From assembly GCA_013407085.1 (NCBI GenBank), contig JACCGJ010010096.1:124001-188000 (forward strand): a stretch of 64,000 nt of DNA. Reading direction: 5' to 3'. A model generated the notes under the pieces. The model was not told the DNA's origin, made no database searches, and was given only the letters and a program-made list of their open reading frames with translations. Positions 10,762-64,000 of the stretch are shown one piece after another. A program made the translations under genes and the position numbers. Every line of letters starts with the position of its first letter. The first letter of the stretch is position 1. This DNA is from Atriophallophorus winterbourni. Taxonomy: Eukaryota > Platyhelminthes > Trematoda > Plagiorchiida > Microphallidae.

Positions 10762-10763
10762 CA

Positions 10764-19213: not shown

Positions 19214-19234
19214 ACGATCCTTGATTAAATTGTC

Positions 19235-25958: not shown

Positions 25959-26012
25959 ATAATTTTTATTCACCTTATACCTACTAGTTAATTAGATTTT
26001 TGTTTTTCTTTA

Positions 26013-26139: not shown

Positions 26140-26257
26140 TCATTCCCACGAGACGTGACACACTGTAGGCGTACTATAGGCTGTTTAGCGGTAAGGTCAA
26201 ATAAGTGGTGGCGGGTTGACTGCTACTTAATCATGTTCCCTGTCCTGACTATCACCC

Positions 26258-26301
26258 TTGGTCTGACGAAGATTCTGTGTCAGAAGTGAAACGTTAACCA
26301 A
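26258..26301 (+). ncRNA. Hammerhead-ribozyme-like motif (PLE-2)
   Basis: The order fits a hammerhead core: TTGGT (stem I, 5' side), CTGACGA, a hairpin with TTCTG-TGT-CAGAA (stem II), GAA, a minimal ACGT (stem III), and ACCAA (stem I, 3' side). TTGGT pairs with ACCAA. Short stem III is typical for motifs of Penelope-like elements. Stem II has an internal loop near the core, so cleavage activity is uncertain. The same motif is at 29244-29287. Confidence 0.55.
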
Positions 26302-26342
26302 AAACTACTCTAACAGATTGCACTCAAATACCTTTGCATTAG

Positions 26343-28252: not shown

Positions 28253-28399
28253 CCAGGATCCGTGGCCGATTTTCCACACAGTGTGTATCCAATTCAATCT
28301 GATACAAGTGAACACGGTCAAGGTCAGTTGACACAGTGGCCCACATACGTAAAAGTACATAACTAACGGGGCTAAGGTTAAGCTGTTTAAAATGCACAT

Positions 28400-28946
28400 C
28401 TGAGGCGATACGCAGAATCGTGAACCAGGCGGCCATACGCGTAACTTATAAGAAAGGGAAAACTATCCATGCACCTCAAGGATAAGACGCTTTTGACTAG
28501 CTTTACGAACAGCATCTACAAATTAAATGTAAGGACTGTTCGGGTGTTTACATAGGACAGACTTCCCGGAAAATTCACGTTCCTAACACCGAATACCGGA
28601 GACAGCTCCTATGCGAGGAATATCAATCCCTGTATTCGTGATTCCGCCTTGGCAGACACACAGTTTTAGACTGGGCCACAGCGTCGATCTAGACAATGAC
28701 AGCAATATTGGGACGCGGTATTAAACACGTATAGTACGTGATTCCGCCTTGGCGGAGCACGTTTTAGATACGGGCCACAGCGTCGATCTAGACAATGTGG
28801 CAATATTGAGACGCGGTATTAAACCGTATAGCGAACGTCTACATGCGGAGGCAGTCGAAATTGCCAAGGCAGGTCGACTAGCGGTCAATAAGGTGGATGG
28901 GGTAGAAATCTCCACAATCTGGCGCTCAGCACTGATGCGAAAGTAA
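28400..28946 (+). pseudogene. GIY-YIG domain remnant (PLE-3)
   Basis: The same remnant as in PLE-2, more damaged: a loss near 28468 and a scrambled, partly duplicated section at 28565-28745. The final part (28749-28946) is identical in protein sequence to 25761-25958, through the same stop. Non-functional. Confidence 0.75.
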
Positions 28947-29243
28947 ATAATTTTTATTCACCTTATACCTACTAGTTAATTAGATTTTTGTTTTTCTTTA
29001 AACCTTAGCCCCGTTAGTTATATACTTTTACGTATGTGGGCCACTGTGTCAACTCACCTTGACAGTGTTCACTTGTATCAGATTGAAGTGGATACACTGT
29101 GTGGAAAATCGGCCACTGATCCTGGTCATTCCCACGAGACGTGACACACTGTAGGCGTACTATAGGCTGTTTAGCGGTAAGGTCAAATAAGTGGTGGCGG
29201 GTTGACTGCTACTTAATCATGTTCCCTGTCCTGACTATCACCC

Positions 29244-29287
29244 TTGGTCTGACGAAGATTCTGTGTCAGAAGTGAAACGTTAACCAA
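29244..29287 (+). ncRNA. Hammerhead-ribozyme-like motif (PLE-3)
   Basis: Identical to the motif at 26258-26301: TTGGT, CTGACGA, TTCTG-TGT-CAGAA hairpin, GAAACGT, ACCAA. Preservation may only reflect recent duplication. Confidence 0.55.
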
Positions 29288-29328
29288 AAACTACTCTAAC
29301 AGATTGCACTCAAATACCTTTACATTAG

Positions 29329-43807: not shown

Positions 43808-43809
43808 TT

Positions 43810-44864
43810 ATGCGTGTTGTACACATGATCATATTTTTAATAGTCCCATTTCACACAGTCTTGGCTACGAGTCGGCCGTCTTACGAATCTCGAATGAGTA
43901 TTTATGAATCTTCCGCCAGACTGCCACATTTAGAAGCCAATTATACCCGTTCAGTTATTAAGCCACCGGCAACTGCCATTTATTACTTTGCAGCGTTATT
44001 CTGTTGCAGCGTGATTAAATGGGTTTCGCGAATACGACAACTCATCAGTAGGAGATCTTTCGAAATATACACGGTCTTGTTTACGACAGCGCACAATGGA
44101 AGAACTGGACGCCAGGTTTATCTTATTTCGCTTTTCAGGTTTCCGTGTCGCCTTTTCGTAGTGCGGGTCGATCGCGCGATCATCATTATCGTAGTCCTAC
44201 GTGTTACGCCATTGGCCACCATCCGCCATCTGACCGATCACGAATTCGCAATGTGAATATTTCTCCATTTTGTCACACGCCAGTAGCGATGTGCGCCCCA
44301 TTGGTTTTGCTGTATGACGATGTCACCGTTCCTACTTTCATCCAATACATAGTAAGATGACATTAAGGAATCCAGCTGTGTGTGAATATTGTATAAATTT
44401 GTGCAGAAATAGATTTAATGTATACTGCTACACATCAGTGCCAGACCATGCGACATATCGAACTTCATTCAAGAAAATCGCCATCGTAAGAATTAGTAAA
44501 CAAATATCGATCTCATTGGAGCTCATTAGTATTTAAAATCTATATTACTTTTGTAGGATCGTTCTTGCATGTAATCGTGAGCCCGATCAGTGAGAAGAGC
44601 AACACGGTCATAGACTGCACGCTGCCTGAAATATTGTCATCCTGGTTCAGCCTAGAATTATATGCAAATGAAAATAGAAATAAAAGTGTGACAGCAGCGT
44701 GTTCAAACATGTACACCACTCCCGGTGGCAGAGAAATTTATCTCGGTTTAAGCTTCACAGCACCGGAATACTGCATGATTGCACATCCGTGTACATCTCA
44801 CGCTTCAAAATCATTGCTACCCACATATAGCGAAATAGCAGTTATGATTTTATACACAGGCTAA
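43810..44864 (+). pseudogene. Tandem secreted-protein gene, first unit (U0, divergent)
   Basis: Homology to the array starts at the ATG (43810), so the usual upstream splice site is absent. Exon D (43810-44010): signal peptide MRVVHMIIFLIVPFHTVLA, end CCS. The D-A intron is the long form (44011-44138, 128 nt) seen in the left array. Exon A (44139-44351) has two extra bases before the Cys-rich part, so it does not join exon C in frame. Exon C (44557-44864) is longer than elsewhere: its frame goes on through TPGGREIYLGLSFTAPEYCM to ILYTG-stop. This copy looks intermediate between the left and right arrays and may show the ancestral exon C. Confidence 0.6.
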
Positions 44865-44983
44865 TATATTTGGATTGCGCTGTAAACCTGTGTAACCTGA
44901 AAATGTGAACCAACATTTGATGATTTCCGATCTCTCTTTCCGTCCATCCGATCGGATGAATTTTCTCTTATTTCGCTTTTCAG

Positions 44984-45596
44984 GTTTCCGTGTGGTCTTT
45001 TCGTAGTGCGGGTCGATCGCGTGATCATCATTATCGTAGTCCTACGTGTTACGGCATTGGCCACCATCCGCCATCTTACCGATCACGAATTCGCAATGTG
45101 AATATTTCTCCAAGTTGTCTCACGCCAGTGGCGGTGTGCCCCATTGGGTTTGCAGTTTGCCGATGTCGCTGTTCCTACTTTCATCCAATACAAGGTAAGA
45201 TGACATTGATTAATCTAGTTGTGTGTGGTTATTATATAACTTTGCAGAGAAATAGATTTGATGTATATTGCTACTCATCAGTGCTGGACCATGCGATATA
45301 TCGAACTTTATTCAAGACAATCGTCCTTGTAACAATTAGTAAACAAATTTCAATCTTATTGGAGCTTATTAGTATTTTAAATCTATATTACTTTTGTAGG
45401 ATCAAGCTTGCATGTACACAAGAGCTCGAACTGTGAGATGAGCAGCGCGGACATAGATTGTACGTGGGCTAAATTATTATCATCGTGGTTCAGCCTAGAC
45501 ATATATTCAAATGAAAATATAAATGGTAGTGTGAATGCAGCAAGTGTTCCAACATGTACACCGCTCTCGTTGGCAAATAAATTTATCTCGGTGTAA
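44984..45596 (+). pseudogene. Tandem gene unit lacking exon D (U0b)
   Basis: A deletion at about 44958 joins the region after exon C of U0 to the end of the D-A intron, so exon D and its signal peptide are gone. Exon A (44984-45194, 211 nt) and exon C (45400-45596, 197 nt) are open and in phase. Without exon D it has no start or secretion signal. Confidence 0.65.
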
Positions 45597-45975
45597 GCTT
45601 TACAGCACCGAAAAACTGCATGATTGCACATCCGTGTACATCTCACGCTGCACAATAATTCCTACCAATATATTTCGAATAAGCATTTATTAATTTACAC
45701 ACAGGCTAATAATTTTGGATTGCGCTGCAAACCTGAGTAACCTGAGAATGTGAACCTACATCTGTTGTTTCCGATCTCTGTTTCCGTCCATCCGGTTAGA
45801 TGAAATGTAACCTGACACTAAATAAATCTCTTGTTATTTATCATGTAAGCGACTATTTATAAGTAGTTGACACTTTGAAAAGTTCACAAAGCTCGTCACG
45901 ACGTTCCGCAACGTGACCACAGGACTGGGTTATTTCCTATTTCAGGTGTGCAGTATTAATTGTCGTCCGCCTCCA

Positions 45976-46828
45976 ATGCGTGTTGCACACATGATCATAT
46001 TTTTAGTAATCCTAGTCCAGACTATCTTGGCTACGAGTCGGCCGACTTACAAATCTCGAATGAGTATTTATGAATCTTCCGCTAGACTGCCACATTTCGA
46101 AGCCTATTATACCCGTCCAGTCATTAAGCCACCTGCAACATCCATTTATGACTTTGTAGCGGTTTTCTATTGCAGCGTGAACTTGACGTGAATTTTCTCT
46201 AATTTCGCTTTACAGGTTTCCGTGTGGCCTTTTCGTAGTGCGGGTCGATCGCGTGATCATCATTATCGTAGTCCTACGTGTTACGGCATTGGCCACCATC
46301 CGCCATCTGACCGATCACGAATTCGCAATGTGAATATTTCTCAATTATGTCTCACGCCAGTGGCGGCGTGCCCCATTAGTTTTGCAGTTTGCCGATGTCG
46401 CTGTTCCTACTTTCATCCAATACAAGGTAAGATGACATTGATTAATCCAGTTGTGTGTGGTTATTATATAACTTTGCAGAGAAATAGATTTGATGTATAT
46501 TGCTACTCATCAGTGCTGGACCATGCGATATATCGAACTTTATTCAAGACAATCGTCCTTGTAACAATTAGTAAACAAATTTCGATCTTATTGGAGCTCA
46601 TTAGTATTTTAAATCTATATTACTTTTGTAGGATCATGCTTGCATGTAAACAAGAGCCCGAACTGTGAGATGAGCAGCACGGACATAGATTGTACGCGGG
46701 CTAAATTATTGTCATCGTGGTTCAGCCTAGACATATATTCAAATGAAAATATAAATGGTAGTGTGACTGCAGCAAGTGTTCCAACATGTACACCGCTCTC
46801 GTTGGCAGATAAATTTATCTCGGTGTGA
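45976..46828 (+). CDS. Secreted Cys-rich protein of the tandem family, 3 exons, intact (U1)
   Basis: Model: 45976-46176, 46216-46426, 46632-46828 (609 nt, 202 aa). Exon D encodes a signal peptide (MRVAHMIIFLVILVQTILA, residues 1-19) and a polar stretch ending YCS. The 39-nt intron has GTGAAC...TACAG and an internal stop, phase 0. Exon A is Ser/Arg/His-rich (RSAGRSRDHHYRSPTC) and then Cys-dense (CPISFAVCRCRCSYFHPIQ). Its donor is G|GTAAGATG in phase 1. Exon C after TTTTGTAG completes a Gly codon and reads GSCLHVNKSPNCEMSSTDID to DKFISV-stop. There are 11 Cys and NxS/T sites (NIS, NGS). CxC followed by GGSC recalls EGF- or EB-type modules only weakly; I do not recognise the family. Secretion is inferred from the signal peptide. 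No transcript evidence is available. Confidence 0.7.
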
Positions 46829-47053
46829 GCTTCACAGCACCGGCGTACTGCATGATTGCACATCCGTGTACATCTCACGCTACACAATCATTCCTACCAA
46901 CATATATCGAATTAGCATTTATAAATTTATACACAGGCTAATAAATTTGGATTGCGCTGCAAACCTGAGTAACCTGAAAATGTGAACCTACATCTTTTGT
47001 TTTCCGATCTCTGTTTCCGTCCATCCGGTTAGATGAAATGTAACCTGACACTG

Positions 47054-47176
47054 AATAAATCTGTTGTTATTTATCATGTAAGCGACTATTTATAAGTAGT
47101 TGACACTTTGAAAAATTCACAAAGCTCGTCACGACGTTCCGCAACGTGACCACAGGACTGGGTTATTTCCTTTTCA
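47054..47176 (+). promoter_or_regulatory. Poly(A) signal followed by the 3' splice site of the next unit (representative)
   Basis: AATAAA at 47054-47059 follows exon C of U1. A 3' splice site (TTATTTCCTTTTCAG, ending 47176) opens exon D of U2 117 nt later. The same pair occurs in almost every unit (for example 59883-59888 and 60008). Such spacing is what one expects between genes of a trans-spliced polycistron. A second AATAAA lies at 46939-46944. Confidence 0.5.
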
Positions 47177-47191
47177 GGTGTGCAGTATTAA

Positions 47192-48059
47192 ATGTCGTCC
47201 GCCTCCAATGCGTGTTGCACACATGATCATATTTTAGTAGTCCCAGTCCAGACTATCTTGGCTACGAGTCGGCCGACTTACGAATCTCGAATGAGTATTT
47301 ATGAATCTTTCGCCAGACTGCCACATTTAGAACCCAATTATACCCGTCCAGTCATTAAGCCACCGGCAACATCCATTTATGACTTTGCAGCGGTTTTCTA
47401 TTGCAGCGTGAACTTGACGTGAATTTTCTCTTATTTCGCTTTTCAGGTTTCCGTGTGGTCTTTTCGTAGTGCGGGTCGATCGCGTGATCATCAGTATCGT
47501 AGTCCTACGTGTTACGGCATTGGTCACCGTCCGCCATCTGACCGATCACGAATTCGCAATGTGAATATTTCTTCAAGTTGTCTAACGCCAGTGGCGGTGT
47601 GCCCCAATGGTTTTGCAGTTTGCCGATTTCGCTGTTCCTACTGTCATCCAATACAAGGTAAGATGAGATTGATTAATCCAGTTGTGTGTGGTTATTATAT
47701 AACTTTGCAGAGAAATAGATTTGATGTATATTGCTACTCATCAGTGCTGGACCATGCGATATATCGAACTTTATTCAAGACAATCGTCCTTGTAACAATT
47801 AGTAAACAAATTTCGATCTTATTGGAGCTCATTAGTATTTTAAATCTATATTACTTTTGTAGGATCTTGCTTGCATGTAAACAGGATCCCGAACTGTGAG
47901 ATGAGCAGCACGGACATAGATTGTACGCGGGCTAAATTATCATCATCGTGGTTCAGCCTAGACATATATTCAAATGAAAATATAAATGGTAGTGTGACTG
48001 CAGCAAGTGTTCCAACATGTACACCGCTCTCGTTTGCAGATAAATTTATCTCGGTGTAA
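47192..48059 (+). CDS. Tandem family gene, open but with altered N-terminus (U2)
   Basis: Model: 47192-47407, 47447-47657, 47863-48059 (624 nt, 207 aa). One T is missing in the signal-peptide region (ATATTTTAG), so the usual ATG runs into a stop. An ATG 18 bases upstream in another frame restores the reading frame and gives MSSASNACCTHDHILVVPVQ at the N-terminus, a weaker signal peptide. Exon A (RSAGRSRDHQYRSPTC ... CPNGFAVCRFRCSYCHPIQ) has a shifted Cys pattern (CRC to CRF, extra Cys in YCH). Exon C is normal. It may be a pseudogene or a non-secreted variant. Confidence 0.45.
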
Positions 48060-48409
48060 GCTTCACAGCACCGGAGTACTGCATGATTGCACATCTGTGT
48101 ACATCTCACGCTACACAATCATCCCTACCAACATATATCGAATTAGCATTTATAAATTTATACACAGGCTAATAAATTTGGATTGCGCTGCAAACCTGAG
48201 TAACCTGAAAATGTGAAATAATATCTGTGGTTTTCCGATCTCTGTTTCCGTCCATCCGGTTAGATGAAATGTAACCTGACACTGAATAAATCTGTTGTTA
48301 TTTATCATGTAAGCGACTATTTATAAGTAGTTGACACTTTAAAAAATTCACAAAGCTCGTCACGACGTTCCGCAACGTGACCACAGGTCTGGGTTATTTC
48401 CTATTTCAG

Positions 48410-49795
48410 GTGTGCAGTATTAAATGTCGTCCGCCTCCAATGCGTGTTGCACACATGATCATATTTTAGTAGTCCCAGTCCAGACTATCTTGGCTACGAG
48501 TCGGCTGACTTACGAATCTCGAATGAGTATTTATGAATCTTTCGCCAGACTGCCACATTTAGAAGCCAATTATACCCGTCCAGTATTAAGCCACCTGCAA
48601 CATCCATTTATGACTTTGCAGCGGTTTTCTATTGCAGCGTGAACTGGACGTGAATTTTCTCTTATTTCGCTTTTCAGGTTTCCGTGTCGCCTTTTCGTAG
48701 CGCGGGTCGATCGCGTGATCTTTATTATCGTAGTCCTACGTGTTACCGCATTTGCCACCATCCGCCATCTGACCGATCACGAATTCGAAATGTGAATATT
48801 TCTTCAAGTTGTCTCACGCCAGTGGCGGTGTGCCCTATTGGTTTTGCAGTTTGCCGATGTCGCTGTTCCTACTTTCATCCAATACAAGGTAAGATGACAT
48901 TGATTATCCAGCACTGTGTGGTTATTATATAATTTTGCAGATAAATAGATTTGATGTATATTGCTGCTCATCAGTGCTGGACCATGCGACATATCGAACT
49001 TTATTCAAGACAATCGTCCCTGTAACAATTAGTAAACAAATTTCGATCTTATTTGAGCTCATTAGTATTTTAAATCTATATTACTTTTGTAGGATCTTGC
49101 TTGCATGTAAACAGGATCCGGAACTGTGAGATGAGCAGCACGGACATAGATTGTACGCGGGCTAAATTATCATCATCGTGGTTCAGCCTAGACATATATT
49201 CAAATGAAAATATAAATGGTAGTGTGACTGCAGCCGTTGCGCCGAGACTGGACCGTTGCGCCGAGACTGGACCTTGACGTGGTGCAGCGGCTTGCGTGCC
49301 TCGATGATCCATTGAGCTATACTGGGTGATGTCTTCGTGTCATCTTCAGAGTTACTCATACCAGGTTGGTCAATGGTGAGAAGCCAGACAAACACAGTCT
49401 CCTTGTCCCTCGCGGACATTGTATACCAGAAGAGGCGTATGAATCCACAAGGATCACCGGCTCGACTGGTTGGGATTATGTCGGGAGTCCCTGCTTGGTC
49501 TCTACCTCGCGAATGGCTTGTGAACTGTACCTACAGTATCCGGCCCCGATAGGTGCGATCCTTAATCTCGCTCCGCTGCCCTGCGGGTTAGGCTTTCGGG
49601 CCAAAGGCTTGAGGTGGGAGTCCTCAAGATCAACTCCTCTACTTCGGCCTGGGCAACCGGGTAGTATCACGCCCACACCCAAATTGATTGGGTGGCACTT
49701 TGTCATTTTTAAATGATTGTGTAAAAATATATAATATATAAGTGTTCCAACATGTACACCGCTCTCGTTGGCAAATAAATTTTTCTCGGTGTAAG
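48410..49795 (+). pseudogene. Tandem gene unit with retroposon in exon C (U3)
   Basis: Exon D (48410-48638) has the T loss seen in U2 and a further base loss (CCAGTATTAAG in place of CCAGTCATTAAG near 48582), which shifts the frame. Exon A (48678-48888) is open with six Cys. Exon C starts at 49093 and is cut after GACTGCAGC (49234) by retroposon R2; its last 55 bases follow at 49740. Confidence 0.75.
49235..49739 (+). mobile_element. Unclassified non-coding retroposon (R2)
   Basis: A 505-bp insertion in exon C of U3. It starts with a 19-bp direct repeat (CCGTTGCGCCGAGACTGGA at 49234-49252 and 49253-49271) and ends AT-rich (GTAAAAATATATAATATATA). Core blocks match R1 (22312-22977) in the opposite strand orientation. 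No target duplication is visible. Frames inside have no recognised domain. Confidence 0.7.
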
Positions 49796-50144
49796 CTTCA
49801 CAGAACCGGAGTAGTGCATGATTGCACATCCGTGTACATCTCACGCTACACAATCATTCCTACCAATATATATCGAATTAGCATTTATAAATTTATACAC
49901 AGGCTAATAAATTTGGATTGCGCTGCAAACCTGAGTAACCTGAAAATGTGAACCTACATCTGTTGTTTTCCGATCTCTGTTTCCGTCCATCCGGTTAGAT
50001 GAAATGTAACCTGACACTGAATAAATCTGTTGTTATTTATCATGTAAGCGACTATTTATAAGTAGTTGACACTTTGAAAAATTCACAAAGCTCGTCACGA
50101 CGTTCCGCAACGTGACCACAGGACTGGGTTATTTCCTATTTCAG

Positions 50145-51027
50145 GTGTGCAGTATTAAATGTCGTCCGCCTCCAATGCGTGTTGTACAAATGATCATATT
50201 TTAGTAGTCCCAGTCCAGACTATCTTGGCTACGAGTCGGCCGACTTACGAATCTCGAATGAGTATTTATGAATCTTTCGCCAGACTGCCACATTTAGAAG
50301 CCAATTATACCCGTCCAGTATTAAGCCACCTGCAACATCCATTTATGACTTTGCAGCGGTTTTCTATTGCAGCGTGAACTGGACGTGAATTTTCTCTTAT
50401 TTCGCTTTTCAGGTTTCCGTGTGGCCTTTTCGTAGTGCGGGTCGATCGCGTGATCATCATTATCGTATTCCTACGTGTTACGGCATTGGCCACCATCCGC
50501 CATCTGACCGATCACCAATTCGCCATGTGAATATTTCTCAATTACGTCTCACGCCAGTGGCGGTGTGCCCCATTGGTTTTGCAGTTTGCCGATGTCGCTG
50601 TTCCTACTTTCATCCAATACAAGGTAAGATGACATTGATTAATCCAGTTGTGTGTGGTTATTATATAACTTTGCAGAGAAATAGATTTGATGTATATTGC
50701 TACTCATCAGTGCTGGACCATGCGATATATTGAACTTTATTCAAGACAATCGTCCTTGTAACAATTAGTAAACAAATTTCGATCTTATTGGAGCTCATTA
50801 GTATTTTAAATCGATATTACTTTTGTAGGATCATGCTTGCATGTAAACAAGAGCCCGAACTGTGAGATGAGAAGCACGGACATAGAATGTACGCGGGCTA
50901 AATTATCATCATCGTGGTTCAGCCTAGACAGATATATTCAAATGAATATATAAATGGTAGTGTGACTGCAGCAAGTGTTCCAACATGTACACCGCTCTCG
51001 TTGGCATATAAATTTATCTCGGTGTGA
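50145..51027 (+). pseudogene. Tandem gene unit, frameshifted (U4)
   Basis: Exon D (50145-50373) has the same two single-base losses as U3, which suggests U3 and U4 are recent duplicates. Exon A (50413-50623) is open. Exon C (50829-51027) has two extra bases (AGACAGATATATTC), so its frame is lost. Confidence 0.7.
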
Positions 51028-51377
51028 GCTTCACAGCACCGGAGTACTGCATGATTGCACATCCGTGTACATCTCACGCTACACAATCATTCCTACCAAT
51101 ATATATCGAATTAGCATTTATTAATTTATACACAGGCTAATAAATTTGGATTGCGCTGCAAACCTGAGTAACCTGAAAATGTGAACCTACATCTTTTGTT
51201 TTCCGATCTCTGTTTCCGTCCATCCGGTTAGATGAAATGTAACTTGACACGGAATAAATCTGTTGTTATTTATCATGTAAGCGACAATTTATAAGTAGTT
51301 GACACTTTGAAAAATTCACAAAGCTCGTCACGACGTTCCGCAACGTGACCACAGGACTGGGTTATTTCCTATTTCAG

Positions 51378-52260
51378 GTGTGCAGTATTAAATGTCGTCC
51401 GCTTCCAATTCGTGTTGTACACATGATCATATTTTTAGTAGTCCCAGTCCAGACTATCTTGGCTACGAGTCGGCCGACTTACGAATCTCGAATGTGTATT
51501 TATGATTCTTTCGCCAGACTGCCACATTTAGAACCCAATTATACCCGTCCAGTCATTAAGCCATCGGCAACATCCATTTATGACTTTGCAGCAGTTTTCT
51601 AATGCAGCGTGAACTGGACGTGAATTTTCTCTTATATCGCTTTTCAGGTTTCCGTGTGGCTTTTTCGTAGTGCGGGTCAATCGCGTGATTATCATCATCG
51701 TAGTCCTACGTGGTATGGCATTGGCCACCATCCGCCATCTGACCGATCACGAATTCGCAATGTGAATATTTCTCCAAGTTGTCTCACGCCAGTGGCGTTG
51801 TGTCCCATTGGTTTTGCAGTTTGCCGATGTCGCTGTTCCTACTTTCATCCAATACAATTTAAGATGGCATTGATTAATCCAGCTGTGTGTGGTTATTATA
51901 TAACTTCGCAGAGAAATCGATTTGATGTATATTGCTACTCATCAGTGCTGGACCATGCGACATATCGAACTTTATTCAAGACAATCGTCCCTGTAACAAT
52001 TAGTAAACAAATTTCGATCTTATTTGAGCTCATTAGTATTTTTAATTTATATTACTTTTGTAGGATCTTGCTTGCATGTAAACAGGATCCCGAACTGTAA
52101 GATGAGCAGCACGGACATAGATTGTACGCGGGCTAAATTATCATCATCGTGGTTCAGCCTAGACATATATTCAAATGAAAATATAAATGGTAGTGTGACT
52201 GCAGCAAGTGTTCCAACATCTACACCGCTCTCGTTGGCAAATAAATTTATCTCGTTGTAA
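51378..52260 (+). pseudogene. Tandem gene unit, start, nonsense and donor lesions (U5)
   Basis: The signal-peptide ATG is ATT (CCAATTCGTG). The Tyr codon near the end of exon D is TAA (GTTTTCTAATGC). The exon A donor is lost (CAATTTAAG in place of CAAGGTAAG near 51857). Exon C (52064-52260) stays open. Translation from the next Met (MIIFLVVPVQTILA) would still stop at the TAA. Confidence 0.7.
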
Positions 52261-52610
52261 GCTTCACAGCACCGGAGTACTGCATGATTGCACATCTGTG
52301 TACATCTCACGCTACACAATCATTCCTACCAACATATATCGAATTAGCATTTATAAATTTATACACAGGCTAATAAATTTGGATTGCGCTGCAAACCTGA
52401 GTAACCTGAAAATGTGAACCTAAATCTTTTGTTTTCCGATCTCTGTTTCCGTCCATCCGGTTAGATGAAATGTAAACTGACACTGAATAAATCTGTTGTT
52501 ATTTATCATGTAAGCGACTATTTATAAGTAGTTGACACTTTGAAAAATTCACAAAGCTCGTCACGACGTTCCGCAACGTGACCACAGGACTGGGTTATTT
52601 CCTATTTCAG

Positions 52611-53493
52611 GTGTGTAGTATTGAATGTCGTCCGCCTCCAATTCGTGTTGTACACATGATCATATTTTTAGTAGTCCCAGTCCAGACTCTCTTGGCTACG
52701 AGTCGGCCGACTTACGAATCTCGAATGAGTATTTATAATTCTTTCGCCAGACTGCCACATTTAGAACCCAATTATACCCGTCCAGTCATTAAGCCACCGG
52801 CAACATCCATTTATGACTTTGCAGCAGTTTTCTAATGCAGCGTAAACTGGACGTGAATTTTCTCTTATTTCGCTTTTCAGGTTTCCGTGTGGCTTTTTCG
52901 TAGTGCGGGTCAATCGCGCGAATATCATCATCGTAGTCCTACGTGTTACAGCATTAGCCACCATTCGCCATCTGACCGATCACGAAATCGCAATGTGAAT
53001 ATTTCTCCAAGTTGTCTCACGCCAGTGGCGGTGTGTCCCATTGGTTTTGCAGTTTGCCGATGTCGCTGTTCCTACTTTAATCCAATACAAGGTAAGATGG
53101 CATTGATTAATCTAGCTGTGTGTGGTTATTATATAACTTTGCAGAGAAATCGATTTGATGTATATTGCTACTCATCAGTGCTGGACCATGCGACATATCG
53201 AACTTTATTCAAGACAATCGTCCCTGTAACAATTAGTAAACAAATTTCGATCTTATTTGAGCTCATTAGTATTTTAAATCTATATTACTTTTGTAGGATC
53301 TTGCTTGCATGTAAACAGGAGCCCGAACTGTGAGATGAGCAGCACGGACATAGATTGTACGCGGGCTAAATTATCATCATCGTGGTTCAGCCTAGACATA
53401 TATTCAAATGAAAATATAAATGGTAGTGTGACTGCAGCAAGTGTTCCAACATGTACACCGCTCTCGTTGGCAAATAAATTTTTCTCGGTGTAA
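52611..53493 (+). pseudogene. Tandem gene unit, ATT start and TAA in exon D (U6)
   Basis: ATT replaces ATG and TAA replaces the Tyr codon, as in U5. The donor after exon D is GTAAAC. Exon A (52881-53091) and exon C (53297-53493) are both open and in phase, so two exons remain conserved in a copy whose first exon is dead. Confidence 0.7.
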
Positions 53494-53842
53494 GCTTCAC
53501 AGCACCGGAGTAGTGCATGATTGCACATCCGTGTACATCTCACGCTACACAATCATTCCTACCAATATATATCGAATTAGCATTTATAAATTCATAACAC
53601 AGGCTAATCAATTTGGATTTGCGCTGCAAAACCTGAGTAACCTGAAAATGTGCACCTACTCTTTTGTTGCCGTTCTCTGTTTCCGTCCATCCGGTTTAGA
53701 TGGAATGTAACCGACACTGAATAAATTGTTGGTATTTATCATGTAAAGCGCTATTAAAAGTAGTTGAACTTTGAAAAATTCACCAAAGCTCGTCACGACG
53801 TTCCGCAACGTGACCACAGGTCTGGGTTATTTCCTATTTCAG

Positions 53843-54724
53843 GTGTGCAGTATTAAATGTCGTCCGCCTCCAAGGCGTGTTGCACACATGATCATATTTT
53901 AGTAGTCCCAGTCCAGACTATCTTGGCTACGAGTCGGCCGACTTACGAATCTCGAATGAGTATTTATGAATCTTTCGCCAGACTGCCACATTTAGAACCC
54001 AATTATACCCGTCCAGTCATTAAGCCACCGGCAACATCCATTTATGACTTTGCAGCAGTTTTCTAATGCAGCGTGAACTGGACGTGAATTTTCTCTTATT
54101 TCGCTTTCCAGGTTTCCGTGTGGCTTTTTCGTAGTGCGGGTCAATCGCGCGAATATCATCATCGTAGTCCTACGTGTTACAGCATTGGCCACCATCCGCC
54201 ATCTGATCGATCTCGAATTCGCAATGTGAATATTTCTCCAAGTTGTCTCACGCCAGTGGCGGTGTGTCCCATTGGTTTTGCAGTTTGCCGATGTCGCTGT
54301 TCCTACTTTCATCCAATACAAGGTAAGATGGCATTGATTAATCCAGCTGTGTGTGGTTATTATATAACTTTGCAGAGAAATCGATTTGATGTATATTGCT
54401 ACTCATCAGTGCTGGACCATGCGACATATCGAACTTTATTCAAGACAATCGTCCCTGTAACAATTAGTAAACAAATTTCGATCTTATTGGAGCTCATTAG
54501 TATTTTAAATCTATATTACTTTTGTAGGATCTTGCTTGCATGTAAACAGGATCCCGAACTGTGAGATGAGCAGCACGGACATAGAATGTACGCGGGCTAA
54601 ATTATCATCATCGTGGTTCAGCCTAGACATATATTCAAATGAAAATATAAATGGTAGTGTGACTGCAGCAAGTGTTCCAACATGTACACCGCTCTCGTTG
54701 GCAAATAAATTTTTCTCGGTGTAA
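53843..54724 (+). pseudogene. Tandem gene unit (U7), broken exon D
   Basis: Exon D has the one-T loss with upstream ATG (MSSASKACCTHDH) and ends in TAA. Exon A (54112-54322) and exon C (54528-54724) are open and in phase. The sequence just before (53590-53770) has many single-base insertions and losses that other units lack. Confidence 0.7.
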
Positions 54725-55074
54725 GCTTCACAGCACCGGAGTACTGCATGATTGCACATCCGTGTACATCTCACGCTACACAATCATTCCTACCAATATA
54801 TATCGACTTAGCATTCATAAATTCATACACAGGCTAATAAATTCGGATTGCGCTGCAAACCTGAGTAACCTGAAAATGTGAACCTACATCTTTTGTTTTC
54901 CGATCTCTGTTTCCGTCCATCCGGTTAGATGAAATGTAACCTGACACTGAATAAATCTGTTGTTATTTATCATGTAAGCGACTATTTATAAGTAGTTGAC
55001 ACTTTGAAAAATTCACAAAGCTCGTCACGACGTTCCGCAACGTGACCACAGGACTGGGTTATTTCCTATTTCAG

Positions 55075-55945
55075 GTGTGCAGTATTGAATGTCGTCCGCC
55101 TCCAATTCGTGTTGTACACATGATCATATTTTTAGTAGTCCCAGTCCAGACTATCTTGGCTACGAGTCGGCCGACTTACGAATCTCGAATGAGTATTTAT
55201 AATTCTTTCGCCAGACTGCCACATTTAGAACCCAATTATACCCGTCCAGTCATTAAGCCACCGGCAACATCCATTTATGACTTTGCAGCAGTTTTCTAAT
55301 GCAGCGTGAACTGGACGTGAATTTTCTCTTATTTCGCTTTTCAGGTTTCCGTGTGGCTTTTTCGTAGTGCGGGTCAATCGCGCGAATATCATCATCGTAG
55401 TCCTACGTGTTACAGCATTAGCCACCATTCGCCATCTGACCGATCACGAATTCGCAATGTGAATATTTCTCCAAGTTGTCTCACGCCAGTGGCGGTGTGT
55501 CCCATTGGTTTTGCAGTTTGCCGATGTCGCTGTTCCTACTTTAATCCAATACAAGGTAAGATGGCATTGATTAATCTAGCTGTGTGTGGTTATTATATAA
55601 CTTTGCAGAGAAATCGATTTGATGTATATTGCTACTCATCAGTGCTGGACCATGCGACATATCGAACTTTATTCAAGACAATCGTCCCTGTAACAATTAG
55701 TAAACAAATTTCGATCTTATTTGAGCTCATTAGTATTTTAAATCTATATTACTTTTGTAGGATCTTGCTTGCATGTAAACAGGATCCCGAACTGTGAGAT
55801 GAGCAGCACGGACATAGATTGTACGCGGGCTAAATTATTATCATCGTGGTTCAGCCTAGACAGATATATTCAAATGAAAATATAAATGGTAGTGTGACTG
55901 CAGCAAGTGTTCCAACATGTACACCGCTCTCGTTGGCAGATAAAT
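55075..55945 (+). pseudogene. Tandem gene unit (U8), broken
   Basis: ATT start and TAA in exon D. Exon A (55345-55555) is open. Exon C (55761 on) has the two-base insertion AGACAGATATATTC and is out of frame. The D and A sequences are almost identical to U6, two units upstream. Confidence 0.7.
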
Positions 55946-56308
55946 TTATCTCGGTGTAAGCTTCACAGCACCGGATACTGCATGATTGCACATCCGTGTA
56001 CATCTCACGCTACACAATAATTCCTACCAACATATATCGAATTAGCATTTATAAATTTATACACAGGCTAATAAATTTGGATTGCGCTGCAAACCTGAGT
56101 AACCTGAAAATGTGAACCTACATCTTTTGTTTTCCGATCTCTGTTTCCGTCCATCCGGTTAGATGAAATGTAACCTGACACTGAATAAATCTGTTGTTAT
56201 TTATCATGTAAGCGACTATTTATAAGTAGTTGACACTTTGAAAAATTCACAAAGCTCGTCACGACGTTCCGCAACGTGACCACAGGACTGGGTTATTTCC
56301 TATTTCAG

Positions 56309-57190
56309 GTGTGCAGTATTGAATGTCGTCCGCCTCCAATTCGTGTTGTACACATGATCATATTTTTAGTAGTCCCAGTCCAGACTATCTTGGCTACGAG
56401 TCGGCCGACTTACGAATCTCGAATGAGTATTTATGAATCTTTCGCCAGACTGCCACATTTAGAACCCAATTATACCCGTCCAGTCATTAAGCCACCGGCA
56501 ACATCCATTTATGACTTTGCAGCAGTATTATTTTGCAGCGTGAACTTGACGTGAATTTTCTCTTATTTCGCTTTTCAGGTTTCCGTGTCGCCTTTTCGTA
56601 GTGCGGGTCGATCGCGTGATCATCATTATCGTAGTCCTACGTGTTTACAACCGCATTAGCACCATTCGCCATCTGACCGATCACGAATTCCGCAATGTGG
56701 AATTTTCTCCCAAGTTGTCTCACGCAGTGCGGTGTGTCCCATTTGGGTTTGCAGTTTTGCCGATGTCGCTGTTCCGACTTTATCCAATACAATGTAAATG
56801 GCATTGATTAATCTAGCGTGTGTGGTTAATTATCTACTTTGCAGATAAATCGATTGATGTACTATTGGCTTACGCATCAGTGCTTGACCATGCGACATAT
56901 CGAACTTTAATCAAACAATCGGCCCTGTACATTAGTAAACAATAAATTTCGATCTTATTGGAGGCCATTAGTATTTTAAATCTATATTACTTGTAGGATC
57001 TGCTGCATGTAACACAGAGCCGAACTGTGAGATGAGCAGCACGGACATAGATTGTACGCGGGCTAAATTATCATCATCGTGGTTCAGCCTAGACATATAT
57101 TCAAATGACAATATAAATGGTAGTGTGACTGCAGCAAGTGTTCCAACATGTACACCGCTCTCGTTGGCAAAAAAAATTTTTCTCGGTGTA
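56309..57190 (+). pseudogene. Tandem gene unit (U9), indel-rich
   Basis: ATT start; exon D otherwise open to FCS. From 56640 to 57015 exon A, the intron and the start of exon C carry many one-base gains and losses (for example GTGTTTACAACCGCATTAGC), and the exon A frame is lost. The pattern resembles uncorrected long-read errors. Confidence 0.65.
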
Positions 57191-57541
57191 AGCTTCACAG
57201 CACCGGAGTAGTGCATGATTGCACATCCGTGTACATCTCACGCTACACAATCATTCCTACCAATATATATCGAATTAGCATTTATAAATTCATACACAGG
57301 CTAATAAATTTGGATTGCGCTGCAAACCTGAGTAACCTGAAAATGTGAACCTACATCTTTTGTTTTCCGTTCTCTGTTTCCGTCCATCCGGTTAGATGGA
57401 ATGTAACCTGACACTGAATAAATCTGTTGTTATTTATCATGTAAGCGACTATTTATAAGTAGTTGACACTTTGAAAAATTCACAAAGCTCGTCACGACGT
57501 TCCGCAACGTGACCACAGGACTGGGTTATTTCCTATTTCAG

Positions 57542-58424
57542 GTGTGCAGTATTGAATGTCGTCCGCCTCCAATTCGTGTTGTACACATGATCATATTTTA
57601 AGTAGTCCCAGTCCAGACTATCTTGGCTACGAGTCGGACGACTTACGAATCTCGAATGAGTATTTATAATTCTTTCGCCAGACTACCACATTTAGAACCC
57701 AATTATACCCGTCCAGTCTTTAACCCACCGGCAACATCCATTTATGACTTTGCAGCAGTTTTCTAATGCAGCGTGAACTGGACGTGAATTTTCTCTTATT
57801 TCGCTTTTCAGGTTTCCGTGTGGCTTTTTCGTAGTGCGGGTCAATCGCGCGAATATCATCATCGTAGTCCTACGTGTTACAGCATTGGCCACCATTCGCC
57901 ATCTGACCGATCACGAATTCGCAATGTGAATATTTCTCCAAGTTGTCTCACGCCAGTGGCGGTGTGTCCCATTGGTTTTGCAGTTTGCCGATGTCGCTGT
58001 TCCTACTTTAATCCAATACAAGGTAAGATGGCATTGATTAATCCAGCTGTGTGTGGTTATTATATAACTTTGCACAGAAACAGATTTGATATATAATGCT
58101 ACTCATCAGTGCTGCACCATGCGACATACCGAACTTTATTCAAGACAATCGTCCTTGTAACAATTAGTAAACAAATTTCGATCTTATTGGAGCTCATTAG
58201 TATTTTAAATCTATATTACTTTTGCAGGATCTTGCTTGCATGTAAACAGGATCCCGAACTGTGAGATGAGCAGCACGGACATAGATTGTACGCGGGCTAA
58301 ATTATCATCATCGTGGTTCAGCTTAGACATATATTCAAATGAAAATATAAATGGTAGTGTGACTGCAGCAAGTGTTCCATCATGTACACCGCTTTCGTTG
58401 GCAGATACATTTATCTCGGTGTAA
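57542..58424 (+). pseudogene. Tandem gene unit (U10), broken exon D
   Basis: ATT start and TAA in exon D. Exon A (57812-58022) and exon C (58228-58424) are open. Exon C reads PSCTPLSLADTFISV at the end. Confidence 0.7.
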
Positions 58425-58804
58425 GCTTCACAGCACCGGAGTACTGCATGATTGCACATCCGTGTACATCTCACGCTACACAATCATTCCTACCAACATA
58501 TATCGAATAAGCATTTATAAATTTATACACACGCTAATAAAATCGGATTGCGCTGCAAACCTGAATAACCTGAAAGTGTGAAGCTACATCTTTTGTTTTC
58601 CGATCTCTGTTTCCGTCCATCCGGTTAGATGAAATGTAACCTGACACTGAATAAATCTGTTGTTATTTATCATGTAAGCGACTATTTATAAGTAGTTGAC
58701 ACTTTGAAAAATTCACAAAGCTCGTCACGACGTTCCGCAACGTGACCACAGGACTGAATCATTACCAACTTCAGGTGTGAAGTATTAAATGTCGTCCGCC
58801 TCCA

Positions 58805-59657
58805 ATGCGTGTTGTACAAATGATCACATTTTTAGTAGTCTCAGACAAGACTATCTTGGCTACGAGTCGGCCGACTTACGAATCTCGAATGAGTATTTAT
58901 GAATCTTTCGCCAGACTGCCACATTTAGAAGCCAATTATACCCGTCCAGTCATTAAGCCACCTGCAACATCCATTTATGACTTTGCAGCGGTTTTCTTTT
59001 GCAGCGTGAAGTGGACGTGAAATTTCTCTTATTTCGCTTTTTAGGTTTCCGTGTCGCCTTTTCGTAGTGCGGGTCGATCGCGTGATCATCATTATCGTAG
59101 TCCTACGTGTTACGGCATTGGCCACCATCCGCCATCTGACCGATCACGAATTCGCAATGTGAATATTTCACCAAGTTGTCTCACGCCTGTGGCGGTGTGC
59201 CCTATTGGTTTTGCAGTTTGCCGATGTCGCTGTTCCTACTTTCATCCAATACAAGGTAAGATGACATTGATTAATCCAGCTGTGTGTGGTTATTATATAA
59301 CATTGTAGAGAAATAGTTTTGATGTATATTGCTACTCATCAGTGCTGGACCATGCGACATATCGAACTTTATTCAAGACAATCGTCCTTGTAACAATTAG
59401 TAAACAAATTTCGATCTTATTGGAGCTCATTAGTATTTTAAATCTATATTACTTTTGTAGGATCTTGCTTGCATGTAAACAGGATCCCGAACTGTGAGAT
59501 GAGCAGCACGGACATAGATTGTACGCGGGCTAAATTATCATCATCGTGGTTCAGCTTAGACATATATTCAAATGAAAATATAAATGGTAGTGTGACTGCA
59601 GCAAGTGTTCCAACATGTACACCGCTCTCGTTGGCAAATAAATTTTTCTCGGTGTGA
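58805..59657 (+). CDS. Secreted Cys-rich protein of the tandem family, 3 exons, intact (U11)
   Basis: Model: 58805-59005, 59045-59255, 59461-59657 (609 nt, 202 aa). Signal peptide MRVVQMITFLVVSDKTILA, then SRPTYESRMSIYESFARLPH and ANYTRP (possible N-glycosylation). Exon A reads VSVSPFRSAGRSRDHHYRSP and has the full Cys cluster CPIGFAVCRCRCSYFHPIQ. Exon C reads GSCLHVNRIPNCEMSSTDID and ends ANKFFSV-stop. Introns: 39 nt (GTGAAG...TTTTTAG) and 205 nt (GTAAGATG...TTTTGTAG). The 3' splice site before exon D is present (58774) and AATAAA follows at 59883-59888. Together with U1 this is the best candidate for a working copy. The function is unknown. Confidence 0.7.
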
Positions 59658-60008
59658 GCTTCACAGCACCGGAGTACTGCATGATTGCACATCCGTGTAC
59701 ATCTCACGCTGCACAATAATTCCTACCAATATATTTCGAATAAGCATTTATTAATTTATACACAGGCTAATAAATTTGGATTGCGCTGCAAACCTGAGTA
59801 ACCTGAAAATGTGAACCTACATCTTTTGTTTTCCGATCTCTGTTTCCGTCCATCCGGTTAGATGAAATGTAACCTGACACTGAATAAATCTGTTGTTATT
59901 TATCATGTAAGCGACTATTTATAAGTAGTTGACACTTTGAAAAATTCACAAAAGCTCGTCACGACGTTCCGCAACGTGACCACAGGACTGGGTTATTTCC
60001 TATTTCAG

Positions 60009-60890
60009 GTGTGCAGTATTAAATGTCGTCCGCCTTCAATTCGTGTTGTACACATGATCATATTTTTAGTAGTCCCAGTCCAGACTATCTTGGCTACGAG
60101 TCGGCCGACTTACGAATCTCGAATAAGTATTTATAATTCTTTCGCCAGACTGCCACATTTAGAACCCAATTATACCCGTCCAGTCATTAAGCCACCGGCA
60201 ACATCCATTTATGACTTTGCAGCAGTTTTCTAATGCAGCGTGAACTGGACGTGAATTTTCTCTTATATCGCTTTTCAGGTTTCCGTGTGGCTTTTTCGTA
60301 GTGCGGGTCAATCGCGTGATTATCATCATCGTAGTCCTACGTGTTATGGCATTGGCCACCATCCGCCATCTGACCGATCACGAATCCGCAATGTGAATAT
60401 TTCTCCAAGTTGTCTCACGCCAGTGGCGGTGTGACATATTGGTTTTGCAGTTTGCCGATGTCGCTCATCCTACTTTCATCCAATACAAGGTAAGATGGCA
60501 TTGATTAATCCAGCTGTGTGTGGTTATTATATAACTTTGCACAGAAATAGATTTGATATATATTGCTACTCATCAGTGCTGGACCATGCGACATACCGAA
60601 CTTTATTCAAGACAATCGTCCTTGTAACAATTAGTAAACAAATTTCGATCTTATTGTAGCTCATTAGTATTTCAGATCTGTATTACTTTTGTAGGATCTT
60701 GCTTGCATGTAAACAGGAGTCCGAACTGTGAGATGAGCAGCACGGACATAGATTGTACGCGGGCTAAATTATTATCATCGTGGTTCAGCCTAGACAGATA
60801 TATTCAAATGAAAATATAAATGGTGGTGTGACTGCAGCAAGTGTTCCAACATGTACACCGCTTTCGTTGGCAGATACATTTATATCGGTG
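60009..60890 (+). pseudogene. Tandem gene unit (U12), broken
   Basis: ATT start and TAA in exon D. Exon A stops early (GTGTGACATATTGG, TGA at the Cys position of VCPIG). Exon C has the two-base insertion near 60795. Three independent lesions. Confidence 0.7.
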
Positions 60891-61273
60891 TAAGCTTCAC
60901 AGCACCGGAGTACTGCATGATTGCACATCCGTGTACATCTCACGCTACACAATCATTCCTACCAACATATGTCGAATAAGCATTTATAAATTTGTACACA
61001 CGCTAATAAATTTGGATTGCGCTGCAAACCTGAGTAACATGATAATGTGAACCTACATCTGTTGTTTTCCGATCTCTGTTTCCGTGCATCCGGTTAGATG
61101 AAATGTAACCTGACACTGAATAAATCTGTTGTTATTTATCATGTAAGCGACTATTTATAAGTAGTTGACACTTTGAAAAATTCACAAAGCTCGTCACGAA
61201 GTTCCGCAACGTGACCACAGGACTGAATCATTACCAACTTCACGTGTGAAGTATTAAACGTCGTCCGCCTCTA

Positions 61274-62126
61274 ATGCGTGTTGTACAAATGATCATATTT
61301 TTAGTAGTCCCAGTCCAGACTATCTTGGCTACGAGTCGGCCGACTTACGAATCTCGAATGAGTATTTATGAATCTTTCGCCAGACTGCCACATTTAGAAG
61401 CTAATTATACCCGTCCAGTCATTAAGCCACCTGCAACATCCATTTATGACTTTGCAGCGGTTTTCTATTGCAGCGTGAACTGGACGTGAATTTTCTCTTA
61501 TTTCGCTTTTCAGCTTTTCGTGTCGCCTTTTCGTAGTGCGGGTCGATCGCGTGATCATCATTATCGTAGTCCTACGTGTTACGGCATTGGCCACCATCCG
61601 CCATCTGACCGATCACGATTCCGCAATGTGAATATTTCTCCAAGTTGTCTCACGCCAGTGGCGGTGTGCCATATTGGTTTTGCAGTTTGCCGATGTCGCT
61701 GTTCCTACTTTCATCCAATACAAGGTAAGACGGCATTGATTAATCCATCTGTGTGTGGTTATTATATAACTTTGTAGAGAAATAGATTTGATATATATTG
61801 CTACTCATCAGTGCTGGACCATGCGACATACCGAACTTTATTCAAGACAATCGTCCTTGTAACAATTAGTAAACAAATTTCGATCTTATTGTAGCTCATT
61901 AGTATTTTAGATCTATATTACTTTTGTAGGATCTTGCTTGCATGTAAACAGGATCCCGAACTGTGAGATGAGCAGCACGGACATAGATTGTACGCGGGCT
62001 AAATTATCATCATCGTGGTTCAGCCTAGACATATATTCAAATGACAATATAAATGGTAGTGTGACTGCAGCAAGTGTTCCAACATGTACACCGCTATCGT
62101 TGGCAAATAAATTTTTCTCGGTGTAA
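61274..62126 (+). CDS. Secreted Cys-rich protein of the tandem family, coding exons intact (U13)
   Basis: Model: 61274-61474, 61514-61724, 61930-62126 (609 nt, 202 aa). Signal peptide MRVVQMIIFLVVPVQTILA. Exon A carries CHIGFAVCRCRCSYFHPIQ, exon C GSCLHVNRIPNCEMSSTDID. All splice phases agree with U1 and U11. The site before exon D has lost its AG (CAACTTCACGTGTG near 61243), so this unit would have to use another 5' exon junction or read-through. U13 and U11 share the unusual GAATCATTACCAACTT stretch before exon D, and so belong to one sub-family. Confidence 0.6.
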
Positions 62127-62505
62127 GCTGCACACACCGGAGTACTGCATATTGCAACATCCGTGTACATCTCACGCTACACAATCATTCCAACTAACAT
62201 ATATCGAATAAGCCTTTATAAATTTATACACAGGTTAATAAATTTGGACTCCGCTGCAAACCTGAGTAACCTGAAAATGTGAAATAATATCTGTTGTTTT
62301 CCGATCTCTGTTTCCGTGCATCCGGTTAGATGAAATGTAACCTGACACTGAATAAATCTGTTGTTATTTATCATGTAAGCGACTATTTATAAGTAGTTGA
62401 CACTTTGAAAAATTCACAAAGCTTGTCACGACGTTCCGCAACGTGACCACAGGACTGCGTTATTTCCTATTTCAGGTGTGCAGTATTAAATGTCGTCCGC
62501 CTCCA

Positions 62506-63355
62506 ATGCGTGTTGTACACATTATCATATTTTTAGTAGTCCCAGTCCAGACTATCTTGGCTACGAGTCGGCCGACTTACGAATCTCGAATGAGTATTTA
62601 TGAATCTTTCGCCAGACTGCCACATTTAGAAGCCAATTATACCCGTTCAGTCATTAAGCCACCGGCAACATCCATTTATGACTTTGCAGCGGTTTTCTAT
62701 TGCAGCGTGACCTGGACGTTAATTTTCTCTTATTTCGCTTTTCAGGTTTCCGTGTCGCCTTTTCGTAGTGCGGGTCGATCGCGTGATCATCATTATCGTA
62801 GTCCTGCCTGTTACAGCATTGGCCACCATCCGCCATCTGACCGATCACGAATTCGCAATGTGAATATTTCTCCAAGTTGTCTCACGCCAGTGGCGGTGTG
62901 CCCTATTTTTTGCAGTTTGCCGATGTCGCTGTTTCTACCTTCATCCAATACAAAGTAAAATGACATTGATTGATCCAGTTGTGTGTGGTTATTATATAAC
63001 TTTGTAGAAAAATTGATTTGACGTATATTGCTACTCATCAGTGCTGGACCATGCGACATATCGAACTTTATTCAAGACAATCGTCCTTGTAACAATTAGT
63101 AAACAAATTTCGATCCTATTGGAGCTAATAAGTATTTTGAATCTATATTTTTTTGTAGGATCTCGCTTGCATGTTTACAGGATCCCGAACTGTGAGATGA
63201 GCAGCACGGACATAGATTGTACGCGGGCTAAATTATTATCATCGTGGTTCAGCCTAGACATATATTCAAATGAAAATATAAATGGTAGTGTGACTGCAGC
63301 AAGTGTTCGAACATGTACACCGCTATCGTTAGCAGATAAATTTATCTCAGTGTAA
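62506..63355 (+). pseudogene. Tandem gene unit (U14), frameshift in exon A
   Basis: Exon D (62506-62706) is intact, with MRVVHIIIFLVVPVQTILA. The stop in the 39-nt D-A intron is mutated (GACGTTAATT in place of GACGTGAATT), so D and A also read as one open frame. Exon A (62746-62954) lacks two bases (CCTATTTTTTGCAG), which destroys the CRCRC motif, and its donor is weakened (CAAAGTAAAA). Exon C (63159-63355) is open. Confidence 0.7.
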
Positions 63356-63705
63356 GCTTCACAGCACCGGAGTACTGCATGATTGCACATCCGTGTACAT
63401 CTCACGCCACACAATCATTCCTACCAACATATATCGAATTAGCATTTATTGAATTATACACAAGCTAATAAATTTGAATTGCGCTGCGAACCTGAGTAAC
63501 CTGAAAATGTGAACCTACATCTTTTGTTTTCCGATCTCTGTTTCCGTCCATCCGGTTAGATGAAATGTAACCTGACACTGAATAAATCTGTTGTTATTTA
63601 TCACGTAAGCGACTATTTATAAGTAGTTGACACTTTGAAAAATTCACAAAGCTCGTCACGACGTTCCGCAACGTGACCACAGGACTGGGTTTTTTCATAT
63701 TTCAG

Positions 63706-64000
63706 GTGTGCAGTATTAAATGTCGTCCGCCTCTAATTCGTGTGGTACACATGATCACATTTTTAGTAGTTCCAGTCCAGACTATCTTGGCTACGAGTCG
63801 GCCGACTTACGAATCTCGAATGAGTATTTATGATTCTTTCGCCAGACTGCCACATTTAGAAGCCAATTATACCCGTCCAGTCATTAGGCCACCGGCAACA
63901 TCCATTTATGACTTAGCAGCAGTATTCTTTTGCAGCGTGAACTAGACGTGAATTTTCTCTTATTTCGCTTTTCAGTTTTCCGTGTCGCCTTTTCGTAGTG
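63706..64000 (+). pseudogene. Tandem gene unit (U15), cut by window end
   Basis: 3' splice site at 63705. ATT replaces the start codon. Exon D is otherwise open (MITFLVVPVQTILA ... LAAVFFCS). Exon A begins at 63976 and continues beyond the window. Confidence 0.7.

What the first reader, a model, noticed from the sequence alone, without database searches (positions are those of the whole stretch)
43808..64000. Tandem array is a multi-copy, 3-exon gene family for a secreted Cys-rich protein
Seen directly: every 1,232-bp unit has three blocks bounded by splice-like signals. D (201 nt from ATG), A (211 nt) and C (197 nt) join in matching phases (0 and 1) to an open 609-nt reading frame in U1, U11 and U13. 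The first exon encodes a clear signal peptide and the product has 11 Cys and NxS/T sites. Inference: this is an amplified secreted-protein locus, perhaps for a host-parasite interface, as seen for other expanded secreted families of flatworms. I know of no named family with this pattern.
Basis: partly seen in the sequence, partly recalled or inferred. Interest (0 to 1): 0.9.

Follow-up and report, generated by a model that had tools for sequence, protein, structure and literature searches.

The report
Gene-shaped satellite repeat in a flatworm
A 1.2-kb tandem repeat in a probable fluke genome has the outline of a three-exon gene, but its copies mutate as if no protein were being kept, so it looks like a decayed gene spread as satellite DNA rather than a working secreted-protein family.

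Summary
The anatomy is real. The array of ~1,232-bp units runs from 43808 past the window to the contig end: 28 copies of block D, 23 of 27 spacings at 1,223-1,235 bp. Read as D-A-C, 4 of 28 units encode 202 aa without a break, three of them in the window. At the strengths of the proposed splice sites, 0 of 150 shuffles allow a 609-nt ORF.

A maintained gene family is not supported. Among 24 aligned units N/S is 0.95 of the neutral expectation (about 0.72-1.24), codon positions vary 87/82/104, and indels are as dense in exons (24/609) as outside (25/623). The ATG is lost in 10 of 28 units by four different changes. Related arrays lie on 21 contigs and ten more; nine representatives differ by 12-15% in exons and spacers, and block A is 211, 212, 213 or 214 nt long, so the frame is not kept. 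No protein relative was found.

Best reading: a gene-derived, mostly pseudogenic satellite family of a probable trematode. A few working copies are not excluded.

The parts
43808..64000 (+). Part in the window of the tandem array of ~1,232-bp units (type I); continues to the contig end at window coordinate 79528
   Evidence: blastn of one unit against window and neighbouring stretches of the contig
43808..44960 (+). First, divergent unit (U0) with a 128-nt intron 1 and block A of 213 nt (type II features); its third block is open for a longer stretch (44559-44861)
45976..46176 (+). Unit U1 block D (first exon of the model, ATG, hydrophobic start)
46216..46426 (+). Unit U1 block A (second exon of the model)
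46632..46828 (+). Unit U1 block C (third exon of the model, to the stop)
58805..59657 (+). Unit U11: D 58805-59005, A 59045-59255, C 59461-59657; reads through
61274..62126 (+). Unit U13: D 61274-61474, A 61514-61724, C 61930-62126; reads through
45820..45975 (+). Spacer P of U1 (AATAAA-like, TATA-like motifs and an acceptor-like site about 30 nt before the ATG); its first 80 nt are the least divergent 80-nt stretch among eight subfamily representatives
   Evidence: the motif names are by eye
7976..31425 (+). Older, broken cluster of related units (type II, intron 1 about 129 nt) mixed with LINE and other repeats

Best explanation
A gene-derived, or at least gene-shaped, satellite family. A small spliced unit, possibly encoding a secreted Cys-rich protein, was caught in tandem duplication, spread into many arrays, and is homogenised locally by unequal exchange or conversion while its coding content drifts. 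Shown: tandem structure, the same splice-like anatomy in several subfamilies, neutral substitution and indel patterns, mostly broken copies, arrays on many contigs. Inferred: that the ancestor was an expressed gene, that exchange rather than selection spreads the unit, and that the few open copies are leftovers.
For: Neutral pattern in 24 aligned units of the array (4 irregular ones left out): N/S 0.95 of expectation, about 0.72-1.24; codon positions 87/82/104; indels 24/609 in exons, 25/623 outside. ATG lost in 10 of 28 units by four changes. 4 of 28 units open. Splice dinucleotides no better kept than other bases: 7 of 240 bases changed by my count, 97.1%, against a mean of 96.5%. Nine subfamily representatives diverge alike in blocks (D 0.126, A 0.124, C 0.126) and spacers (P 0.125, i1 0.132, T 0.121, i2 0.154), with A at 211-214 nt. 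Model open in 7 of 58 three-block units, all among the 48 of type I, none of 10 of type II. Neighbouring units are more alike (0.947) than distant ones (about 0.931-0.934 from 12 apart) and one ATG-less variant is shared by seven units. Gene-like anatomy.
Against: Stop-creating variants are 6 where 11.8 were expected (P 0.05; shifted frames 20 of 24.5 and 19 of 26.9). Some pooled pN/pS values are below 1: D 0.70 and C 0.69 within type I, A tail 0.57 and C 0.62 between types; others are not (D 1.26 between types, A start 0.92-1.12) and the pairs are not independent. D is open in 14 of 19 full-length copies of other arrays (22 partial ones not judged), and its middle is the second least divergent 80-nt stretch (0.087), with second codon positions lowest (0.104/0.078/0.114). 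No progenitor gene was found.
Confidence: 0.7

Rival explanations
1. A living family with fast birth and death: a minority of intact units is expressed as secreted Cys-rich proteins, the rest is debris, and rapid change hides the constraint.
For: 4 of 28 units on the contig and 3 more among units fetched from other contigs read through; dN/dS of one of six pairs of the four open units is 0.51; D mostly open in other arrays; fewer stop-creating variants than expected.
Against: dN/dS of the six pairs of open units is 0.51-1.08; N/S of all variants excludes about 0.7 or less at the 1% level under the spectrum used; the frame is lost in type II; the sets were chosen by similarity of translated D and so favour open copies.
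Confidence: 0.15
2. An ordinary satellite whose three-block ORF is a coincidence of type I.
For: The ORF exists only in type I; at the same thresholds the other eight representatives give 351-537 nt; without a site threshold 4 of 40 shuffles reach 609 nt; no homologue.
Against: 0 of 150 shuffles at the site thresholds. The acceptor before A is among the top three AG sites in nine of nine representatives and the donor after A is first in seven and among the top three in nine. D and A in frame 0 have no stop in eight of nine representatives each, though several were chosen because D was full length.
Confidence: 0.12
3. The arrays act as RNA or chromatin: transcribed repeats or an internal-conflict element of the Stellate type, with no need for a kept protein.
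For: The first 80 nt of P, with TATA-like and AATAAA-like motifs, are the least divergent stretch (0.065 against a mean of 0.136); acceptor-like site about 30 nt before the ATG in 22 of 24 units.
Against: No transcript data. By count of invariant columns P is not among the six best stretches, which lie in D and elsewhere. Parasitic flatworms lack the Piwi pathway (PMC8191739, passages), so a piRNA version is unlikely.
Confidence: 0.03

Closest known systems
Stellate / Su(Ste) repeats of Drosophila melanogaster (PMC7874207, passages seen)
   Same: A gene with an ORF and two introns turned into tandem repeats, derived from a gene with the same exon-intron structure; array sizes of tens to hundreds of copies; damaged relatives elsewhere.
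   Different: No homology was tested or expected; Stellate derives from a CK2-beta gene and is silenced by piRNA, whereas here no progenitor is known, the product would be secreted, and flatworm parasites lack Piwi. Works like it in the way it spread; not a member.
Satellite DNA in general (concerted evolution of long tandem arrays)
   Same: Long head-to-tail arrays on many contigs, subfamilies, local homogenisation, neutral change.
   Different: The unit is long and has the outline of a spliced gene with an ORF still open in some copies.
Amplified secreted protein families of flukes (micro-exon genes, polymorphic mucins; recalled; PMC2576457 seen in a search listing only)
   Same: Multi-copy locus whose product would begin with a hydrophobic, signal-like stretch (by eye).
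   Different: Blocks of 201, 211 and 197 nt are not micro-exons; no homologue found; no coding constraint among copies.

Membership tests
Functional protein-coding multigene family | Purifying (or clear positive) selection on the coding blocks | tested here: not met
   N/S 0.95, interval about 0.72-1.24, in 24 units; six pairs of open units 0.51-1.08. Mixed pooled values (0.55-2.57).
Functional protein-coding multigene family | Most copies keep the frame | tested here: not met
   4 of 28 on the contig; 7 of 58 three-block units
Functional protein-coding multigene family | Spliced transcripts and protein | not testable with these tools
   No reads or proteomes on hand
Secreted protein | Signal peptide | tested here: inconclusive
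   Hydrophobic start by eye in the translations; no predictor available
Satellite DNA | Long head-to-tail arrays of near-identical units, in several places | tested here: met
   28 units on this contig up to its end; matches on 21 contigs and ten more, several with repeated spacing of about 1.2-1.3 kb
Satellite DNA | Concerted evolution | tested here: met
   Identity falls with distance between units; shared variants in neighbouring units
Satellite DNA | Heterochromatic or centromeric location | not testable with these tools
   No chromosome map
Gene-derived satellite | A progenitor gene with the same exon structure | tested here: inconclusive
   None found: protein searches empty; own-genome lists show only the best 150 candidates, which lie in arrays where looked at
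Stellate / Su(Ste) | CK2-beta homology | tested here: not met
   No Pfam family over its cut-off on six pieces
Micro-exon genes of flukes (definition recalled) | Several very short symmetric exons | tested here: not met
   Blocks of 201, 211 and 197 nt

The most novel reading that the evidence does not exclude
The arrays are a living amplified gene system of a fluke: a three-exon secreted-protein gene carried in satellite-like arrays of at least hundreds of copies, where exchange between units keeps regenerating a few intact, fast-changing copies among pseudogenes, as a reservoir of variant proteins or as a Stellate-like conflict element.
Probability: 0.12. Interest if true: 0.75.

Novelty: new member of a known kind. 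Interest (0 to 1): 0.35.

Why it matters
It shows a satellite that carries a whole gene outline (splice-like sites, a 202-aa frame in some copies) and still evolves as non-coding DNA, which is a trap for gene prediction in fluke genomes. If any copy is expressed, the family would allow a test of how satellite-style exchange feeds protein diversity. Keyword searches of the open literature (listings only) showed no paper that names this repeat, which is weak evidence because the species is unknown.

Tried and rejected
Homology: Pfam on six pieces, none over a cut-off; three weak matches (YncO E 0.76, DUF3581 0.11, ATR1_WY-dom 0.23) were set aside. PDB by sequence with the frame holding U0's third block: none up to E 10. 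The 5.8-billion-protein search with the same frame (3 candidates, none scored) and with a natural 185-aa frame of unit 62506 that runs through D, intron 1 and part of A (36 candidates, none at E 1). Viral contigs: 4 pattern matches, none a relative. Control for that silence: the window's Gypsy protein gives 1,363 matches in the same database, with Dicrocoelium dendriticum among the best, so at least one fluke is represented. Rfam at gathering scores: none in the window.

Sequencing error as the cause of broken frames: of 24 distinct exon indels three lie in runs of 5 or more bases; these could be errors, the others and the ATG losses less easily.

Diversifying selection on D: type II pairs gave 2.57, but the set holds a unit whose D is frameshifted (29836) and few changes; not relied on.

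Not done: copy number by DNA pattern; species not identified; structure prediction not tried, because a spliced protein is not among the sequences that tool says it accepts.
Full report
Setting. The window is bases 124001-188000 of a 203,528-bp contig (C6551) in a 537-Mb assembly of 15,840 contigs. The host is very probably a flatworm and likely a trematode: PF08034 (TES) gives six matches, all over its cut-off, and none in 14 control genomes, and the nearest named relatives of the window's Gypsy element are Dicrocoelium dendriticum proteins at about 51% identity. The species was not identified.

Aligning one unit to the window and its neighbours gives head-to-tail copies from 43808 to the end of the contig: 28 copies of block D, 23 of 27 spacings between 1,223 and 1,235 bp. 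Blocks D (201 nt from ATG), A (211 nt) and C (197 nt) are separated by GT...AG stretches of 39 and 205 nt. Read in the stated phases, 4 of 28 units give 202 aa without a break: 45976, 58805 and 61274 in the window and 70463 beyond it. The three in the window have 11 Cys and a hydrophobic start, both judged by eye.

The anatomy is more than chance. In unit 61274 the two proposed acceptors are the best two of 54 AG sites and the intron-2 donor the best of 85 GT sites; the intron-1 donor is poor. At those thresholds 0 of 150 dinucleotide shuffles allow a two-intron ORF of 609 nt; with no threshold 4 of 40 do. The weights are generic values from memory and the thresholds come from the claimed sites. 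Over nine subfamily representatives the acceptor before A is among the top three AG sites in nine, and the donor after A is first in seven and among the top three in nine; an acceptor-like site about 30 nt before the ATG is among the top four in six of the eight that hold that stretch. So the founder plausibly was a spliced gene.

The copies do not behave like genes. Over 24 aligned units (four irregular ones left out), distinct variants fall 87/82/104 on codon positions 1/2/3 (p 0.23 against equality); 194 are non-synonymous and 73 synonymous against 192.5 and 68.7 expected from the spacer spectrum, ratio 0.95, about 0.72-1.24. With variants in at least two or three units it is 0.90 and 0.85, with wider intervals. 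Variants per base are 0.448 in the blocks and 0.483 outside. Distinct indels number 24 in 609 exon bases and 25 in 623 others. The start codon is lost in 10 of 28 units in four ways. Splice dinucleotides and AATAAA are not clearly better kept than other bases. Six pairs of the four open units give dN/dS 0.51-1.08.

Results against this reading. Stop-creating variants are 6 where 11.8 were expected (P 0.05), though shifted frames also fall short (20 of 24.5, 19 of 26.9). Pooled pN/pS over 48 type I and 10 type II units is below 1 for some parts (D 0.70 and C 0.69 within type I; A tail 0.57 and C 0.62 between types) and not for others (D 1.26 between types; A start 0.92, 1.03, 1.12), with related, non-independent pairs. 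D is open in 14 of 19 full-length copies of other arrays, window cluster 1 and U0, 22 partial rows not judged. The middle of D is the second least divergent 80-nt stretch and the richest in invariant columns (60 of 80), and second codon positions are lowest there (0.104/0.078/0.114). These leave room for past or weak constraint on D.

The family is genome-wide. With block D as query the own genome gives 644 candidates, of which the best 150 were scored; 150 of 150 match, on 21 contigs, 14 of them with a stop inside D (contigs and stops counted by eye). With U0's longer third-block frame there are 18,372 loose candidates; of the 150 scored, 141 carry one to six stops and nine none, seven of these nearly full length: U0, three on C3471, two on C12382 and a more distant one on C3346 (by eye); ten contigs of that list are not in the first. 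Both lists are drawn by translated similarity. Two classes appear among 71 distinct units: type I, 61 units (intron 1 of 38-40 nt, A mostly 211, C mostly 197) and type II, 10 units (intron 1 of 127-129 nt, A mostly 212-213, C mostly 195). 58 have all three blocks by match, 48 and 10; the model is open with ATG in 7, all type I. Between nine representatives, several of which I chose because D was full length, the blocks diverge as much as most spacers (D 0.126, A 0.124, C 0.126; P 0.125, i1 0.132, T 0.121, i2 0.154) and A is 211, 212, 213 or 214 nt long. Hence the D-A-C frame belongs to type I, not to the family. D and A in frame 0 have no stop in eight of nine representatives each, which fits inheritance from a coding founder.

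Exchange. Identity between units falls from 0.947 for neighbours to about 0.931-0.934 at 12 to 16 units apart, and one ATG-less variant is shared by seven units. That is the pattern of local unequal exchange or conversion (inference). The first 80 nt of P are the least divergent 80-nt stretch (0.065, mean 0.136), a possible trace of a promoter, a polyadenylation signal or an exchange signal.

No relatives. The searches named under Tried and rejected found no protein, structure or RNA family related to it, in a database that holds at least one fluke's proteins.

Conclusion. Shown: a gene-shaped tandem repeat family evolving without clear coding constraint. Inferred: descent from a spliced gene and spread as a satellite. 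The closest process I know is the amplification of Stellate and Su(Ste) in Drosophila, where a gene with two introns became tandem repeats (PMC7874207, passages); silencing there is by piRNA, and parasitic flatworms lack Piwi (PMC8191739, passages). A living minority of secreted-protein copies is not excluded and is the reading to test with RNA.

Noticed in passing
window 7976-32606: Units of the repeat are joined at sharp junctions to LINE pieces: a 242-bp LINE-like start recurs at 4381, 7360, 8779, 15141 and 31439, and endonuclease/RT frames end abruptly in unit sequence near 12144 and 21596. Cause (insertion, recombination or assembly) not resolved.
   Followed up: partly
window 1-6913 and the stretch before it (L003, L004): A 9.5-kb duplication at 99.5% identity: window coordinates -2623 to 6913 repeat -10780 to -1257.
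   Followed up: no
window 16008-19699, minus strand: Gypsy-type element with RT, RNase H, integrase and a weak protease match; 51% identical to Dicrocoelium dendriticum proteins.
   Followed up: partly
window 5197-6274: A separate 350-bp tandem repeat, 3.1 copies, with further copies upstream of the window.
   Followed up: no
window 44960-45436, 46192-46668 and further units: Block A's frame stays open through the proposed intron 2 to 158 aa in seven units of the window list, an alternative to splicing that was not pursued.
   Followed up: no
window 49235-49739: About 500 bp inserted in one unit, with a 19-bp repeat at its left edge.
   Followed up: no
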